From NCBI RefSeq assembly GCF_009695635.1, contig NZ_VUNN01000002.1, forward strand, positions 124,001-188,000: DNA of 64,000 nucleotides. The letters are read 5' to 3'. A model generated the notes under the pieces. It was not told the origin of the DNA, searched no databases, and saw nothing but the letters and a program-made list of their open reading frames with translations. This DNA comes from Bullifex porci. GTDB lineage: Bacteria > Spirochaetota > Spirochaetia > Sphaerochaetales > Sphaerochaetaceae. Below, piece by piece: positions 2,669-8,377 of this stretch. The number at the start of each line of letters is the position of its first letter. The stretch's first letter is position 1. A program made the translations under genes and the position numbers.

Positions 2669-4567
2669 ATGGCAGATGAAGATTTGTTTGAGCAAGGTCT
2701 GCTCGAAGCGACTCAGTCAACCGATGAAGGTGAAAAGAAAGAGAAGAGAGTTGTCAAGACCAAGCGAACGATCAAAGTAAAGGTTAAGGCGAAGGAACCT
2801 GTAGAGGAAACTAAAGAACCAATAGAGGAGCAGGGTGTCGCTGAGACCGAGAAAGTTGAAAAACCACGTCGTAAAGTACAAAGAAAACCAAAAAAGAAAG
2901 TAAATCCTGAGGTAGAGGTAAAGAGTGAGGAGGAGCAGCCTACACTAATTGATGTAGAGACTATTACTCCAGAGCCTGTAGTAGAATTACCTCCTACTCC
3001 TGTAGAGGTTGAAGAAAAGCCTCAAGAGGAGATCGCTACTCAAGAGGTAACTCCTACTGAGGAAGCTATAAATGAAGCTAATACAGAGACTCCTTCAGAG
3101 AGCGAAAGCGAAGAGAAGAGTGAAGAAGATAGCTCAAAAACAAATAAACAAATAAATCTCAACAAAAAAAATAAGTTTAATAAAAATCAAAAGCCAAAGA
3201 GAGAAGAGACTATAGAGGTAAATCTTGAGGAAAACCCAGATGCACCACTACTTTTTGTCTCATATCTTACAACTCTTCCAGTTGATAATCTTCGTGAATT
3301 AGCACGCCAAAAGGGTATTGCTGAGGATGTAATCTTAGATTGCAGAAAGCAGGATCTAATTAAGGAGATGTGCCGCTTACACTCCTTTAGTGGTGGAGCA
3401 TTAATGGTAGAGGGTACTATCGAAATCCTGCCTGACGGCTTTGGCTTCTTAAGATATTCAATAAATAGCTACCTCTCAGGAAGTGAGGATGTATATCTAT
3501 CTGCTGGTATGATTAGAGGGTGCGGACTAAGAACTGGTGATACAGTATATGGCCAAATTAGAACTCCAAGAGATACTGATAGATTCTACTCAATGTTTAG
3601 AGTAATGAAGGTTAATGATCAAACTCCACAGGAGGCTAAGCTCAGAGTTCCTTTCGATACCTTAACACCACTTTTCCCAGATGAGAAATTAGATTTACAA
3701 TATGTATCAGATAGTGAAAAGCCAGATACTATGGATATCGCAACTAGAGTAGTTGATCTCTTCTGTCCAATCGGAAAGGGACAAAGATCAATTATCGTTG
3801 CTCCTCCTAGAACTGGTAAGACTGTATTGATGCAGAAAATCGCTAATGCTATTACAACTAACCATCCAGAGGTTAAGCTCTTTGTTCTTCTTGTTGATGA
3901 AAGACCTGAAGAGGTAACAGATATGAGAAGAAATGTTAAGGGAGAGGTTGTAGCCTCAACCTTTGATGAGCAGGCAACTAGACACGTTCAAGTTGCAGAG
4001 ATGGTAATTGAGAAAGCAAAGCGCTTAGTTGAGCTTCATAAGGATGTAGTAATCCTTCTAGACTCTATTACTCGTTTAGCTAGAGCATATAACCAAACAG
4101 TACCTGCATCAGGTAAGATATTGTCTGGTGGTGTTGACTCTAATGCTCTTCATAAGCCAAAGAGATTCTTTGGTGCTGCTAGAAATATCGAAAATGGTGG
4201 CTCCTTAACAATTATCTCAACAGCTTTAATTGAGACTGGCTCTAGAATGGATGAGGTTATCTTTGAGGAATTCAAGGGAACAGGTAACAACGAAATAGTT
4301 CTCGATAGAAGAATGGCTGATTCAAGAAAGTTCCCAGCAATTAATATTAAAAAGTCTGGAACACGTCGTGATGACTTAATTCTCTCTAAGGATGAGCTAA
4401 CAAGATTGTGGTTACTTAGAAATGCTGTTTCTAACATGGATGATTTGGAGATGAGTGTATTCCTAATTGACAAGATGAAGAAAACGCACAATAATAAAGA
4501 GTTCCTAGCCTCTATGTCTGGTGCTGCAGTAAGCTCTGCGACTCAGACGATGAGCGTGTTAAAATGA
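2669..4567 (+). CDS. rho: Transcription termination factor Rho with long charged N-terminal extension
   Basis: RNA-dependent ATPase helicase that ends transcription. The C-terminal two thirds is canonical Rho: a Rho N-terminal segment near residues 195-240, an RNA-binding cold-shock fold ([16 protein letters not shown]), Walker A PPRTGKT at 379-385, Walker B in [16 protein letters not shown], and the Q/R-loop region around SGGVDSNAL. At 632 residues it is about 210 longer than E. coli Rho. Residues 1-180 are a low-complexity Lys/Glu/Pro-rich tract that switches from basic ([12 protein letters not shown]) to acidic ([11 protein letters not shown]) and then to Asn/Lys-rich. Such inserts occur in Rho of several phyla and are usually disordered and RNA-binding. 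No terminator is seen before rpmE. Confidence 0.97.
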
Positions 4568-4620
4568 TGTTAATCATCTGTGAAAGCAGGTGATAGAAGA
4601 TATAATATTTGGAGGACAAT

Positions 4621-4824
4621 ATGAAGAAGGATATTCACCCTAACTATCAGTTACAGGAGATTACATGTTCCTGTGGTAATGTAATTAAGACTAAGTCAAC
4701 AGCTAAGAGCATGCACGTTGAAATTTGTTCAGCTTGCCACCCATTCTTTACAGGAACTCAGAAGCTCGTAGACTCAACAGGTCGTGTTGAACGCTTCAAT
4801 AAGAGATACGCTAAGAATAACTAA
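4621..4824 (+). CDS. rpmE: 50S ribosomal protein L31 (zinc-binding type)
   Basis: A 67-residue L31 beginning [10 protein letters not shown]. Four cysteines (C16, C18, C36, C39) mark the zinc-binding C+ form, and the HPFFTG block is conserved. The ATG at 4621 is preferred over an in-frame TTG at 4609, because the GGAGG at 4611-4615 lies between them at the right distance for 4621. It sits 50 bases after rho, probably in the same transcript, and a strong terminator follows. Confidence 0.97.
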
Positions 4825-4842
4825 GATAAAATTTAAACTATT

Positions 4843-4870
4843 AGGAGGTAGAGCTTTCTACCTCTTTTTT
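4843..4870 (+). terminator. Intrinsic terminator after rpmE
   Basis: A 10-bp stem AGGAGGTAGA / TCTACCTctt with a four-base loop (GCTT) is followed by a run of seven or more T. It closes the lnt-cinA-rho-rpmE unit and marks the left boundary of the accessory segment. Confidence 0.85.
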
Positions 4871-4989
4871 TATCATCAATATAATAAATATCTGAATTCA
4901 AAACATTAATTAAATAACTAGATGTACTAATAGAAGTTTTTCTCCAAGTATATTTCAAAAAACTTATTATTTATAATTCCAAGAGATGT

Positions 4990-5886
4990 TTAAGAATAAA
5001 TCTTATATTCAAATGATAACAGAGCTTTTTTTCCTCGTACTTGGATTTCAATGTTTATGATTTTAACAGCAGCAAACTTATTGTGCCGATTCATAAGGAC
5101 AAGCACCTCTCCGACAGAAACTTCACGTGTTCTACTTGTAAAATCAAAGCTTGAAAAGTCAGTATCATCGGGGATGACATGTTGCCCATAACGATATCCT
5201 ATAAGTTTCACTTTGTCTCTATACGCATATATTGTATTAATGCCGCATTCGCTCCAACTTGTGACAAACTCATAATCACCAGTACCAATAGTAAAACACC
5301 CACTATTATTTTTGAAATCAAAAGAAGCTGTTCCTTCCATCAGTGGATTTTGATATTTGGATTTTTCTAAAGTTGTCATGATTGTAATAGAATTTGCGTT
5401 TTTATCTGAAAAAGGGTTTTCGCCTAATGCAGGCTTTCTTTTCACATCCTCGTCATATATACGCTCCAACAGTTCTTGATATCTTGCTAAATAGTTGTCA
5501 TCGTCATTGAAGTCAATGTAACTTTTGGAACCGAAGGCCAATGGCGTTTTTTGAGTACCCAAATTATTACGAATTACTGGGATCACAAAGTAGAGGTGTT
5601 GATCACGCAGTAAGCTCTGCGTCATAATCATCGCTTCATAGCCACTCCCTCCATGGCCCAAATTAGCTTTTTGGACATAGGTTTCTGAACAAATACACAA
5701 AACAAGATTTGAAGAATTTAAACCTTGTTCCATAAAGAATCGCAGGTCATTACCAAGTCGAAGGTCCCACTGATCAAGAATTACATTAACTCCGTGAGAG
5801 CGTAAATCTGTAGCAAGCTTTAGCACCCAATCTTTGTGTGCATCGTTATCATGCGAGTAAGAAATAAAAACATTAGGATTAACCAT
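4990..5886 (-). CDS. TIR/SEFIR-domain protein, candidate NAD-consuming effector
   Basis: The N-terminal 150 residues form a TIR/SEFIR domain: VFISYSHDN (6-14) as box 1, the VNVILDQWDLRLGND segment, LVLCICSETYV, and GGSGYE, where E84 is at the usual position of the catalytic glutamate of NADase TIR domains. Residues 160-298 are beta-rich with no match I recognise and could be a sensor or a ligand-binding or partner-binding domain. The start ATG has GAGG eight bases upstream. It is the third and last gene of a minus-strand operon behind a HigB-like toxin and a HigA/ImmA protein. Bacterial TIR proteins of this type often act in abortive anti-phage defence; that role is inferred here from domain and context only. 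Confidence 0.82.
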   Translation of the reverse strand: MVNPNVFISYSHDNDAHKDWVLKLATDLRSHGVNVILDQWDLRLGNDLRFFMEQGLNSSNLVLCICSETYVQKANLGHGGSGYEAMIMTQSLLRDQHLYFVIPVIRNNLGTQKTPLAFGSKSYIDFNDDDNYLARYQELLERIYDEDVKRKPALGENPFSDKNANSITIMTTLEKSKYQNPLMEGTASFDFKNNSGCFTIGTGDYEFVTSWSECGINTIYAYRDKVKLIGYRYGQHVIPDDTDFSSFDFTSRTREVSVGEVLVLMNRHNKFAAVKIINIEIQVRGKKALLSFEYKIYS

Positions 5887-5971
5887 CTTTATACCTCAAT
5901 TCTTCGTCCATCAGTTTTGGAAGCAGTCGACTTAGGGCTTGTTTTAGCTCTATATTATGGGAATAGTGCCT

Positions 5972-7024
5972 TTATACAACTATTTCGTATTTTTCTTTTA
6001 AGTTATTTAGCATGGTGTACTTTATCATTCCCTCCCGCTGCATTCTTCCAACTACTATACCAGGTGCAATTCCATTTTCATTCGCAAATTGAATTACACT
6101 ATTCTCTGAATAATCTCTAATACTTCTGAAAGTTTCAAAAGCATCAGCTGAAATAAGCGTATCACTAGACCATTTATCAGCTGACTTTTCATCATTTTCA
6201 GATGTCCCATTTTGTTGCCAAACATGTCCAAGAGCAATATGCCCAAGTTCATGGAAAAGACTGAACCAAAACTTATCCGCGTCCTTACCTCTAGCTGTGA
6301 GTCCAACAACAATCTTATTTCCACTTATAAAAGATGCTCCCTGAAGGAATGATCCTTTAAGGTGCGGTAGAAATACCAAAGCTATTCCGCAATCAGCAAG
6401 AAATTTCTTAAGCTGTGGACAAAAATCCTCTGGTTTAAGAACCGTCATTTTTCTTATTTCAGGTATAGAAGAAATCAAACCGTTGATATTTATTGGAGCT
6501 GTCGGCATATTACGTGCATTAATCTTTGCCTCCTGTGCCCATGCCATCAATGCTAAATCACTTTTTTCTGTAATCGCTAAACGTCTGCAAGCAATTCGCA
6601 TAATCTGCTTACTCTCAAGAAGTGAGAGTTCAACAACCTCAAAGTATTTCCTTAAGTTAACAACTTTTTCCTTAGCATCTCTAGTCTTTGGAACCCATCC
6701 AAATTTTGCCATTTCACTATAGGGAAAATGTTTTACCATTTCATCATCAGCATCTATTGCGTTTTCTGCTTCCGCCTTTATAATCTTCTCTCTGTAAATT
6801 GCCTCAAGATTATTCCAAAACTTAGCTGGTACACCTAAAACCACCTCCAGCTTAATAGCGGTCTCTGGTGTAAGCTGAACATCACCATTAATGAGCTTGC
6901 TGATATGCTTTTCAGACATATCCATCCTGGCTGCAAACTCCTTCTGGCTCATGCCTCTGTCGTTCAACTGCTCTTTAATTGTCGCCCCAGGTGGCGTTGC
7001 AATATAACTATGACTTCTTACCAT
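5972..7024 (-). CDS. HigA-type HTH antitoxin fused to ImmA/IrrE metallopeptidase
   Basis: 350 residues. Residues 10-75 are an XRE helix-turn-helix of the HigA/VapI addiction-module type (MSQKEFAARMDMSEKHISKL, then PETAIKLEVVLGVPAKFW). The C-terminal half is an ImmA/IrrE-like Zn peptidase with HELGH at 258-262. The start follows AAGGAGGT at a good distance, 19 bases after the toxin gene. HTH-ImmA fusions repress their own operon and in some systems cleave repressor proteins on a signal. Position second in a toxin-antitoxin-TIR operon suggests it neutralises the toxin and controls TIR expression (inference). Confidence 0.88.
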   Translation of the reverse strand: MVRSHSYIATPPGATIKEQLNDRGMSQKEFAARMDMSEKHISKLINGDVQLTPETAIKLEVVLGVPAKFWNNLEAIYREKIIKAEAENAIDADDEMVKHFPYSEMAKFGWVPKTRDAKEKVVNLRKYFEVVELSLLESKQIMRIACRRLAITEKSDLALMAWAQEAKINARNMPTAPININGLISSIPEIRKMTVLKPEDFCPQLKKFLADCGIALVFLPHLKGSFLQGASFISGNKIVVGLTARGKDADKFWFSLFHELGHIALGHVWQQNGTSENDEKSADKWSSDTLISADAFETFRSIRDYSENSVIQFANENGIAPGIVVGRMQREGMIKYTMLNNLKEKYEIVV

Positions 7025-7043
7025 ATTGCTACCTCCTTGACTA

Positions 7044-7340
7044 TTAATGATAATCGACTATTTCCAAAATATTTGCTATTTGGATTTCATCGCCATTCTT
7101 CTCGAATACCAATCTGTACGGTTGAACCAAATCCATCGCGTATTGTCCTTTCCTATTCTGCGTGAGAGGATGACACCTTCCGATATGGAACTGTATCAAC
7201 ATCTCAACAGTATCTGCAGCAGCAATTTCATCTATACGCTGATGTATTTTATCGGCCATTTCTCGACCGTAGGTTCTTTCTGCAATTGTGGCATTTGTAC
7301 AAATCTTTTTGATGCTGTTGTTCTTGTACTTAATATCCAA
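7044..7340 (-). CDS. HigB/RelE-family toxin
   Basis: A 98-residue RelE/ParE-superfamily protein. It has an N-terminal helix pair, then the beta-sheet core with CHPLTQNRKGQYAMDL, the PYRLVFE strand and IANILEIVDYH at the end, as in HigB mRNA interferases. The start is TTG at 7338-7340, with AGAGGTG seven bases upstream. It is the first gene of the operon, ahead of its HTH antitoxin, which is the gene order usual for higBA. A promoter and an inverted-repeat operator lie just upstream. Confidence 0.85.
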   Translation of the reverse strand: MDIKYKNNSIKKICTNATIAERTYGREMADKIHQRIDEIAAADTVEMLIQFHIGRCHPLTQNRKGQYAMDLVQPYRLVFEKNGDEIQIANILEIVDYH

Positions 7341-7359
7341 GCCATCACCTCTATTTGGG

Positions 7360-7409
7360 ATTTACCTATGAGGTAAATTAAATATAGCACTAATATCTCT
7401 TTTACTCAA
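7360..7409 (-). promoter_or_regulatory. Promoter and operator of the higB-higA-TIR operon
   Basis: Reading leftward, TTGAGT (7404-7409), a 17-base spacer and TATATT (7381-7386) form a near-consensus sigma-70 promoter. Over the expected start site lies a perfect inverted repeat ATTTACC-tatga-GGTAAAT (7360-7378), 20 bases before the toxin TTG codon. An operator there fits autorepression by the HTH antitoxin. Confidence 0.72.
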
Positions 7410-7632
7410 TATTTTTATTTATCTCTCAAAACTTTAAAAAGAGATTAGATTTTGGTTATTAATCTCATTTTTTTTTAATAATATAACTAGCTCTTATTTT
7501 TATTATTGATAATATATATACAAAATAGCTATCTACACTTGCTTTAAAAGTCAACAAAATTTGAATTTAGTTATCTAACTCTATAATTAAGTATAATTAA
7601 CAACTTTTGTGTTTAATTTTGTGATTATAATA

Positions 7633-7661
7633 TTGACCTTTAATAAAGCTATGTTATTAGA
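7633..7661 (+). promoter_or_regulatory. Candidate promoter of the small membrane toxin mRNA
   Basis: TTGACC at 7633-7638 is followed by a 16-17 base spacer and TATTAG/ATTAGA at 7655-7661. Predicted transcription would begin near 7667, just where the left inverted arm of the toxin locus begins. The -10 is imperfect; the -35 is good. Confidence 0.55.
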
Positions 7662-7764
7662 TTGAGATGTGGCCTAACTCGTAGAGCGGTAGGCGGTTTT
7701 CACTCCATGTCGCCTTGATATGGAGGTTTAACCTCCAAATCTTAATGATAAGGAGGTGATAGTT

Positions 7765-7866
7765 ATGAATGATTATCAAATCTTTGATTTAATAATTAAA
7801 GTAACAGGATTAGTTATTTCAGCAGTAATGCTTGGAATAGCTATCACTAAGAATAATCGCCACTAG
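7765..7866 (+). CDS. 33-residue single-helix membrane peptide, type I toxin-like
   Basis: A tiny ORF with a perfect AGGAGGTGAT Shine-Dalgarno at 7751-7760. The peptide has a short acidic N-terminus (MNDYQIFDLI), one hydrophobic helix (about residues 8-26) and a charged tail (TKNNRH). This layout and the sequence style match the holin-like/TxpA-Fst group of type I toxins, which insert in the inner membrane. The stop codon lies inside the stem of a terminator hairpin. A convergent antisense RNA promoter is found 85-115 bases downstream. The toxin role is inferred from architecture and not from a database match. Confidence 0.7.
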   Translation: MNDYQIFDLIIKVTGLVISAVMLGIAITKNNRH

Positions 7867-7944
7867 CCCACTTCAAATTCTAGTGACGATTTTTTTGTCT
7901 CTTAATCTTGGAGTGGAAAACCGTCTATCGATAGGCCACTTCCT
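7850..7944 (-). ncRNA. Antisense RNA 1, candidate antitoxin of the type I locus
   Basis: On the minus strand, TTGACG (7974-7979), exactly 17 bases and TACTAT (7951-7956) make an excellent promoter firing toward the toxin gene. The predicted RNA starts near 7944 and would run to the shared hairpin at 7855-7891, overlapping the 3' end of the toxin mRNA. Its 5' leader is homologous to the 5' leader of the toxin mRNA, which forms the inverted arms of the locus. Ends are predicted only. Confidence 0.65.
7855..7897 (+). terminator. Hairpin terminator of the toxin mRNA, overlapping its stop codon
   Basis: AATCGCCACTAG (7855-7866) pairs with CTAGTGACGATT (7880-7891), with one mismatch, and a T run follows. 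The same stem read leftward would end antisense RNA 1, so it may work in both directions. Confidence 0.8.
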
Positions 7945-8095
7945 ATTAAAATAGTAATCTTTCAACTATCGTACGTCAATAATATAGCTTAATTATTTTC
8001 TTAACTATACTCATAGAAATAAAGAGATACTTAAGTTTAATTCATTCCTTTAAATTTTAAGAAGAAATCCTAATATCACAATGCTATGAAACTAA

Positions 8096-8190
8096 AATAA
8101 TAATCGCCACTAATCCCCTTCAATTTATAGTGGCGATTTATCGCTAAAATATCTTGGAGTGGAAAATCGTCTCTCGATAGTTCACTTCCT
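8096..8190 (-). ncRNA. Antisense RNA 2, orphan copy of the antitoxin RNA
   Basis: A second copy of the antitoxin unit. A minus-strand promoter TTGACG (8220-8225), a 17-base spacer and TACTAT (8197-8202) precede a leader nearly the same as that of RNA 1, with the shared segment GATTTTCCACTCCAAGAT. A hairpin AATCGCCACT / AGTGGCGATT (8102-8111, 8129-8138) follows. No intact toxin ORF lies beyond it; only the tail codons AAT AAT CGC CAC TAA remain, preceded by in-frame stops. Confidence 0.62.
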
Positions 8191-8377
8191 ACTTGCATAG
8201 TAATCGTTCACCTACAACACGTCAATAAATTTTAACTATAGCTTAATACAAAAATAGGACAGAAAAACACATACAGAGACTCTAAGATCACTTGTTTTAT
8301 TGTATAAAAAATTTATATTGCAACAAATTATGTTAAAATAGTATTATTGCAAAGAATAACGTGAATTGAGGGTCGGT

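What the first reader, a model, noticed from the sequence alone, without database searches (positions are those of the whole stretch)
7633..7979. Type I toxin-antitoxin-like locus in a spirochaete-like chromosome
The sequence shows a 33-residue single-helix peptide with a perfect ribosome site, a stop codon buried in a terminator, and a convergent near-consensus promoter (TTGACG-17-TACTAT) that would make an antisense RNA over the toxin 3' end. This matches the TxpA/Fst/holin-like toxin plan, which I know mainly from Firmicutes. In this host it would be either a horizontal arrival or a group not yet described for the lineage.
Basis: partly seen in the sequence, partly recalled or inferred. Interest (0 to 1): 0.75.

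Follow-up and report, generated by a model that had tools for sequence, protein, structure and literature searches.

The report
Type I toxin-antitoxin family in spirochaetes
A gut spirochaete carries several copies of a tiny membrane-peptide gene paired with an opposing RNA gene, the layout of a self-poisoning and self-protecting switch, and relatives of this switch, with an unusual RNA front end shared by both partners, occur in gut Firmicutes.

Summary
The 33-aa peptide (7765-7866 +) has five intact copies in its own genome and matches in 43 of 139 genomes of its spirochaete family (own included). The same kind of unit occurs in a second spirochaete family and in gut Bacillota. The peptide is under purifying selection (pN/pS 0.21; 42 of 42 independent pairs). 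The convergent promoter is conserved (TTGAC in 57 of 76 loci, about 10 expected). The antisense terminator overlaps the last codons. The leader is predicted to hide the ribosome site more than shuffled leaders do in 68 of 76 loci. The own genome has six antisense units whose toxin is lost or broken, three of them complete. Best reading: a type I toxin-antitoxin family. It is not a Fst/par member, because the repeats shared by the two RNAs are inverted, not direct. The window peptide fails Hol_Tox, though three relatives with the same RNA layout pass it. The new feature: toxin mRNA and antitoxin RNA begin with near-copies of one domain that co-vary locus by locus. This fits an mRNA closed 5' to 3', with the antitoxin mimicking its 5' end; support is moderate and partly confounded. 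Toxicity and transcripts are untested.

The parts
7633..7660 (+). toxin promoter: TTGACC (7633-7638), 16 nt, TATTAG (7655-7660); weak -10
   Evidence: sequence; over 76 loci the best sense promoter averages 7.9 of 12 matches against 6.5 shuffled
7669..7709 (+). 5' domain of the toxin mRNA (GTGGCCT...CGGTAGGCGGTTTTCACTCCATG), contains hairpin P1 (7672-7676 / 7690-7694); near-copy of the antisense RNA 5' domain
7703..7725 (+). leader hairpin P2, CTCCATGTC (7703-7711) with GATATGGAG (7717-7725)
   Evidence: fold; 98.5% of cells paired in 15 leaders, changes one-sided G-U types, two unpaired cells
7721..7737 (+). alternative hairpin P3, TGGAGGT / ACCTCCA, mutually exclusive with P2 and P4
   Evidence: one U-A to C-G compensatory pair, in 4 of 15 sequences
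7731..7757 (+). P4: anti-SD ACCTCC (7731-7736) paired with SD GGAGGT (7752-7757), silences translation in the predicted fold
7765..7866 (+). toxin ORF, 33 aa, one hydrophobic helix; C-terminal NNRH-stop codons double as antisense terminator stem
7855..7896 (+). stem-loop overlapping the stop codon plus T7; terminator-like on both strands
   Evidence: sequence, folds; runs on both strands counted over 76 loci
7848..7944 (-). predicted antitoxin RNA, about 97 nt, start near 7944, end near 7848; both ends are inferred
   Evidence: fold z -2.7; own-genome copies
7907..7939 (-). 5' domain of the antitoxin RNA (GTGGCCTATCGATAGACGGTTTTCCACTCCAAG), the inverted copy of 7669-7709
7951..7979 (-). antitoxin promoter TTGACG-17-TACTAT
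   Evidence: conserved across 76 loci
8096..8228 (-). second antitoxin unit without a toxin (promoter, 5' domain and terminator stem present)
   Evidence: fold z -3.2

Best explanation
This is a chromosomal type I toxin-antitoxin locus. A weak promoter makes a toxin mRNA whose leader folds P1, P2 and an anti-SD:SD helix (P4), so the primary transcript is translationally silent. The 33-aa peptide is a single membrane helix, distantly Hol_Tox-like, and is inferred to damage the membrane when made. A stronger convergent promoter makes an antisense RNA of about 97 nt that ends in the stem inside the last toxin codons, pairs with the mRNA 3' end and keeps it silent or has it degraded. Shown by sequence: peptide conservation, promoter conservation, predicted hiding of the SD, antisense units beside lost toxins, and the shared inverted 5' domain. 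Inferred: the transcripts, toxicity, the activation step (removal of the anti-SD by processing or refolding), and the role of the shared 5' domain. The last is most likely a helix between the mRNA 5' end and a read-through 3' end, for which the antitoxin 5' domain competes.
For: Homologues: 5 intact copies plus 1 truncated in the own genome; 43 of 139 genomes of the family. Purifying selection over the first 21 codons: pN/pS 0.21, 42 of 42 independent pairs. Antisense promoter: 9.6 of 12 matches against 6.7 shuffled, TTGAC in 57 of 76 loci against 10.5 expected; A-run of 4 or more in the last codons (antisense U-run) in 44 of 76. SD hidden: unpaired probability 0.148 against 0.319 for dinucleotide-shuffled leaders, lower in 68 of 76, p 1.5e-12. 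Six antisense units beside lost or broken toxins in the own genome, three complete; all five intact toxins there have one. Shared 5' domain: inverted-repeat score 34.5, direct 22.3, shuffled 21.2; also without the motif filter, 49 of 49 spirochaete loci above shuffles. Cognate similarity beats noncognate (78 loci, 0 of 10,000 permutations; against 5 nearest, p 6e-5). Full-length mRNA fold z -9.5. Three relatives with the same layout pass the Hol_Tox cut-off.
Against: No transcript or toxicity data. The peptide itself matches no toxin model. The promoter alone is at the chance rate. Three of the six toxin-less antisense units are incomplete. Pair counts of P1, P2 and P4 do not exceed shuffles, and P1 is paired in only 77% of cells. 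With a stricter alignment the inverted domain beat all of 50 shuffles in only 58 of 122 loci. The G-U asymmetry that supports the closing helix weakens once core positions are left out: 126 to 51, against 117 to 71 in an ORF control, p 0.08, and 409 to 284 noncognate, p 0.003; energy controls show the same asymmetry in part. In the window locus the sense strand has a T7 after the stem, so read-through may be a minority there, and its predicted SD exposure does not change between short and long forms.
Confidence: 0.8

Rival explanations
1. A small membrane regulator, not a toxin: the peptide has a benign role and the antisense RNA merely tunes it.
For: Conservation and purifying selection would look the same; no toxicity assay exists; only three of six toxin-less antisense units are complete.
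Against: Six own-genome units lost or broke the toxin while keeping some or all of the antisense part, and all five intact toxins there have one; weaker sense than antisense promoter; ribosome site hidden; link to Hol_Tox through relatives with the same layout.
Confidence: 0.15
2. A Fst/par-type system in which the two RNAs meet through complementary 5' repeats (DRa/DRb) and a shared terminator.
For: Convergent genes, shared stem at the 3' ends, peptide of 33 aa; Fst layout as described in passages of PMC4147584 and PMC8167048.
Against: Repeats are inverted, not direct: direct-repeat score 22.3 against 21.2 shuffled; antisense segment not more complementary to its own leader than to others, p 0.80; no model match.
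Confidence: 0.03
3. A mobile inverted-repeat (MITE-like) element whose ends are the 5' domains, with the peptide as passenger.
For: Several copies per genome with inverted ends.
Against: Conservation runs outward past the repeats into promoters, above all on the antisense side; cognate co-variation of the repeats; coding selection on the peptide. Target duplications were not searched for.
Confidence: 0.02

Closest known systems
Hol_Tox (PF16935), putative holin-like toxins
   Same: Short single-helix peptide with a start like M-x-x-[YF]-E; three relatives that share the RNA layout score above the curated 23.3 bits: L144 27.6, L188 24.1, L176 23.9
   Different: The window peptide has no match; the other spirochaete peptides tried stay below the cut-off, best 14.3 bits in the window's family and 17.5 in the second family
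Fst / par of pAD1 (RNA I and RNA II)
   Same: Convergent toxin mRNA and antisense RNA with a shared terminator, peptide of about 33 aa (passages)
   Different: par has direct repeats that base-pair between the RNAs; here the repeats are inverted, so the two RNAs carry the same sequence
AapA/IsoA of Helicobacter pylori; hok/sok
   Same: AapA1 mRNA is silent, its SD hidden by a 5'-3' long-distance interaction (passage of PMC8167048); a 5'-3' helix and hidden SD are predicted here. The hok comparison is recalled, from no call
   Different: The 3' partner of the mRNA 5' end is here the very site where the antitoxin RNA starts; 3' processing not tested; peptide not compared directly
TxpA/RatA and BsrG/SR4 of Bacillus subtilis
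   Same: Antisense RNA complementary to the toxin mRNA; RNase III duplex decay for txpA-RatA (passages); 3' overlap recalled
   Different: Longer peptides (recalled); none of our peptides tried passes an NCBIfam type I toxin cut-off

Membership tests
type I toxin-antitoxin (general) | conserved short hydrophobic peptide under selection | tested here: met
type I toxin-antitoxin (general) | antisense RNA gene with own promoter and terminator overlapping the toxin mRNA | tested here: met
   by sequence and conservation only; transcript not seen
type I toxin-antitoxin (general) | toxic when expressed, neutralised by the RNA | not testable with these tools
   no expression data; indirect sign only: antisense units beside lost toxins
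Hol_Tox PF16935 | score at or above the curated 23.3 bits | tested here: not met
   0 families for the window peptide; own genome 0 matches over cut-off; 3 of 10 other peptides pass
Fst/par | direct repeats at the 5' ends of both genes giving complementary RNAs | tested here: not met
   76 loci; 74 loci
Fst/par | convergent genes sharing a terminator | tested here: met
   window; in the family only 25 of 76 loci have 4 or more T in a row after the stem in the sense direction
AapA/hok-like 5'-3' closed mRNA | mRNA 5' end pairs with its own 3' region | tested here: inconclusive
   cognate helix -47.7 against -37.8 kcal/mol noncognate; G-U asymmetry partly explained by composition
AapA/hok-like 5'-3' closed mRNA | activation by 3' processing | not testable with these tools
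   needs RNA end mapping
Rfam families | match at gathering score | tested here: not met
   0 matches in the window; best weak match ncr1575, 26.3 bits against 60; in 8 relatives' loci only tRNAs

The most novel reading that the evidence does not exclude
A cross-phylum class of type I toxin-antitoxin systems in which the antitoxin RNA is a molecular mimic of the toxin mRNA's own 5' end. Both RNAs start with the same domain; the mRNA 5' domain closes onto the read-through 3' end of the same mRNA, and the antitoxin, starting exactly at that 3' strand, takes the 5' domain's place, freeing the leader to lock the ribosome site. Repression would work by strand replacement within the mRNA rather than by covering the ribosome site.
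Probability: 0.3. Interest if true: 0.8.

Novelty: new variant of a known kind. Interest (0 to 1): 0.6.

Why it matters
A 2025 paper states that type I systems were known only from Proteobacteria, Firmicutes and Tenericutes before its own cyanobacterial case (passages of PMC12390103). In the listings of my searches I saw no title or abstract start that describes a type I system in spirochaetes or this peptide group in Lachnospiraceae; [quoted passage not shown] A multi-copy family shared by gut spirochaetes and gut Bacillota widens the range. A co-varying 5' domain on both RNAs is a layout that the listings and passages I saw do not describe. It makes a clear prediction about how an antitoxin can act at a distance. 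The library held lacks most subscription papers.

Tried and rejected
Chance ORF with chance promoter: rejected. Anti-SD mimic acting in trans, that is, the antisense 5' segment pairing with the leader below its own copy: tested on 74 loci, cognates no better than noncognates, permutation p 0.80. A wider leader x antisense duplex test on 78 loci gave p 0.016, but its strongest row was a spurious locus (L179), so I do not use it. P3 as a sufficient 'on' switch: cutting the leader to 44-74 nt opens the SD (above 0.5) in only 5 to 10 of 76 loci; cutting into or past the anti-SD (20-32 nt kept) opens 24 to 46 of 75 or 76. Direct repeats as in par: not found. Rfam: nothing but tRNAs. Phage and plasmid records: no match for three peptides in four searches (low-complexity filtering may hide such peptides). 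IMG/VR: 3 loci on 2 contigs. Hol_Tox model in the own genome: one chance hit in a 415-aa frame. PHROGs: for the toxin peptides only weak hits to families of unknown function.

Rows dropped and bias: one search accepted a unit only if a short motif of the antisense domain lay within 130 nt downstream. That favours my reading in the spirochaete rows of all statistics from then on; the genome contigs rows had no such filter. Repeated without the filter, 49 nonredundant spirochaete loci give TTGAC in 42 (6.7 expected) and the inverted score above shuffles in 49 of 49; the 34 unfiltered genome-contig loci give 21 (5.3 expected) and 28 of 34. From 79 distinct candidates, 5 were dropped as not of the family and 3 by hand (71 spirochaete plus 55 genome contigs rows = 126, of which 122 were long enough there and 120). 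Two spurious rows (L179, L182) are still among the 78 loci but not among the 76, or the 74. Of the 118 stretches the statistics use the 80 whose titles were listed; all 118 were inspected (123 matches, 85 short frames, of which 6 could not be tested and 53 showed the inverted domain above the second highest of 40 shuffles). Weak rows in long frames (for example L127, L131) were judged chance.

Full report
What is there. The single-window scan shows that such promoters are at the chance rate, so the case had to be decided by comparison.

Copies and relatives. The own genome (67 contigs, 2.42 Mb) has six matches: five full-length, one truncated with a TGA. In the same family 43 of 139 genomes match at E 0.01 or better, own included, in 4 of 22 genera. 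Some carry arrays: in G006 copies lie about 420 bp apart. Over the phylum sample 21 of 392 genomes match at E 0.003. Five of these are in one genus of another family; I looked at all five, and four (L125, L128-L130) show by eye a leader, SD, downstream stem and inverted domain, while the fifth lies in a long frame. In these, 85 of 123 matches are short frames; 6 of the 85 could not be tested and 53 show the inverted 5' domain above shuffles. Titles were listed for 80 of the 118. Of the 55 short frames in those 80, by my count of the titles, 40 are from Clostridia, 7 from spirochaetes, 3 from Veillonella, 1 each from Thomasclavelia and Ornithinibacillus, and 3 are truncated or chance. Long frames look like ribosomal protein S6 and cytochrome bd genes (recognised from memory), that is, chance. 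In a sample of the family of the [Ruminococcus] torques genome (G517, included) 20 of 200 genomes match at E 1e-4.

Host. Contigs of the window's family equal in length records titled 'uncultured Spirochaetaceae bacterium' (G111:C44 and L151, both 78,896 bases; G110:C20 and L184, both 142,940). So the spirochaete assignment holds; the genus name is not known to me.

The peptide. Over the first 21 codons, 42 independent pairs give 257 synonymous and 173 nonsynonymous differences, pN/pS 0.21, pN below pS in 42 of 42. The C-terminal codons are also RNA: NNRH-stop (AATAATCGCCACTAG) is an arm of the antisense terminator stem, and in other clades KK-stop supplies its U-run. The window peptide hits no Pfam family and only a weak irrelevant NCBIfam one. 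Of ten peptides from genome contigs and the second spirochaete family, three pass the Hol_Tox cut-off of 23.3 bits (L144 27.6, L188 24.1, L176 23.9), and two come near (L204 21.4; second family 17.5). The three that pass share the RNA layout; L204 did not test positive for it. I therefore regard the window peptide as a distant relative of Hol_Tox, but not a member by the test.

The antisense gene. In 76 nonredundant loci the best antisense promoter scores 9.6 of 12 against 6.7 in shuffles, and TTGAC is found in 57 of 76 against 10.5 expected; the sense promoter is weaker (7.9 against 6.5; TTGAC in 13 of 76, in a shorter stretch). An A-run of 4 or more in the last seven codons, a U-run on the antisense strand, is present in 44 of 76; a T-run of 4 or more on the sense strand after the stem in 25 of 76. 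The stem thus looks first of all like the antitoxin's terminator, and toxin mRNA may often read through; the window locus, with T7, is one of the 25. The spirochaete rows had been chosen with a downstream motif; without that filter the promoter and the inverted domain hold (42 of 49 and 49 of 49; genome contigs rows 21 of 34 and 28 of 34).

Antisense units without a toxin. A search of the own genome with the antisense region gives 12 matches. One is an 18-nt chance match; five belong to the intact toxins. Of the other six, two have no toxin (one of them is window 8096-8228), one has a toxin without its N-terminus, and three have toxin remains with lost start or frame. Three of the six keep promoter, domain and stem (L260, with a changed domain, L261 and L264); L263 lacks the stem, L267 the promoter and L268 the domain. 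No intact toxin of this genome lacks an antisense unit. This is the direction that a toxic product would favour, but the numbers are small.

The leader. In the window the leader folds with z -3.2: P1, P2, and P4, which pairs the anti-SD ACCUCC with the SD GGAGGU. P3 (UGGAGGU with ACCUCCA) is mutually exclusive with both P2 and P4. Over 76 loci the SD is unpaired with probability 0.148, against 0.319 when the leader upstream of the SD is shuffled (lower in 68 of 76, p 1.5e-12). In an alignment of 15 leaders P1 is paired in 77.3%, P2 in 98.5% and P4 in 94.3% of cells; none of the counts clearly exceeds shuffles, though slid versions pair only 41-56%. P3 has one compensatory pair, in 4 of 15. The truncation scan suggests that the SD opens mainly when the anti-SD is removed, so I infer an activation step by processing or refolding.

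The shared 5' domain. The mRNA leader and the antisense RNA begin with near-copies (window 7669-7709 and 7939-7907). Across 76 loci the inverted-repeat score is 34.5, the direct-repeat score 22.3 and the shuffled score 21.2; with a stricter scoring 58 of 122 loci beat all of 50 shuffles. The two copies co-vary by locus: cognate similarity 39.7 against 31.9 noncognate, reached in 0 of 10,000 permutations, and better than the mean of the five nearest noncognates in 55 of 78 (p 6e-5). Gene conversion between the arms could also do this. If the mRNA 5' domain pairs with a read-through 3' end, differences should be of the G-U kind in the sense strand: 181 against 51, 55 loci against 5, ratio 3.55 against 1.4 to 2.4 in four controls. 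With the core positions left out it is 126 to 51, against an ORF control of 117 to 71 (p 0.08) and noncognates of 409 to 284 (p 0.003). So the direction is as predicted, but composition and P1 explain part of it. The sense-strand helix is stronger than its antisense-strand counterpart (-47.7 against -39.8 kcal/mol), but two controls show a smaller asymmetry of the same sign; cognate helices are stronger than noncognate ones (-47.7 against -37.8). The full-length window mRNA folds with z -9.5. The long form exposes the SD slightly more than the short form on average (0.216 against 0.154; 24 loci more open, 4 less), with no change in the window itself. The obvious alternative, that the antisense copy pairs in trans with the leader, was tested and not supported.

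Where it sits. In 14 of the 15 other genomes of the genus, rho and the downstream kinase gene lie on one contig with 352 to 565 bp between their matches; in the window genome it is 3.8 kb (in G010 they lie on different contigs). The insert carries a bSEFIR-like protein (PADLOC 2.6e-70), a HigA-like protein (NCBIfam above cut-off) that matches PD-Lambda-2_B (3.5e-38), a 98-aa toxin-like ORF (PHROG 3066, 9e-13), the type I locus and the toxin-less antitoxin unit. The type I pair may thus hold a small defence insert in place; that is inference.

Comparison with what is known. Fst/par was read in passages of two reviews: convergent RNAs, shared terminator, direct repeats. The first two are met here; the third is not. 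AapA1 is described as silent through a 5'-3' long-distance interaction, the closest known mechanism that I saw. A 2025 paper states that type I systems were known only from three phyla before its cyanobacterial case (passages). [quoted passage not shown] bolteae and a Fst-like one in C. asparagiforme (passage). In search listings (titles and abstract starts) I saw no spirochaete case and no description of this group in Lachnospiraceae; the library lacks most subscription papers.

Verdict. By sequence evidence a type I toxin-antitoxin family that matches no curated model for the window peptide, not seen for spirochaetes in the literature searches named, and a new variant because both RNAs share a co-varying 5' domain. 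Toxicity and transcripts remain to be shown.

Noticed in passing
window 4990-7340 (-): A defence-like set lies next to the locus: bSEFIR/TIR protein (4990-5886), HigA-like HTH protein matching PD-Lambda-2_B (5972-7024) and a 98-aa toxin-like ORF (7044-7340).
   Followed up: partly
window 4567-8366: About 3.4 kb more DNA between rho and a kinase gene than in the 14 other genomes of the genus where both genes lie on one contig (gap 352-565 bp there).
   Followed up: partly
G000 C12:121336 and C12:121674 (L260, L263), about 2.5 kb left of the window start: Two further antisense units, one with no toxin and one with a truncated toxin and no terminator stem.
   Followed up: partly
L050, L083 (G006), L063 (G105): Arrays of toxin units: G006 spacing about 420 bp, G105 spacings 855 and 433 bp.
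   Followed up: no
L070 (G105:C12), unit at 976: Its antisense segment has a stretch of about 15 nt complementary to its own leader, by far the strongest of 74 loci; perhaps a converted arm.
   Followed up: no
L142, L185, L212, L245: Peptides starting MSDYE[LI]I with a different leader (in the Veillonella loci L142 and L185 AGTCAG..CGAGGTTGGGCC, similar in L212); perhaps a separate branch (L245 has no title listed).
   Followed up: no
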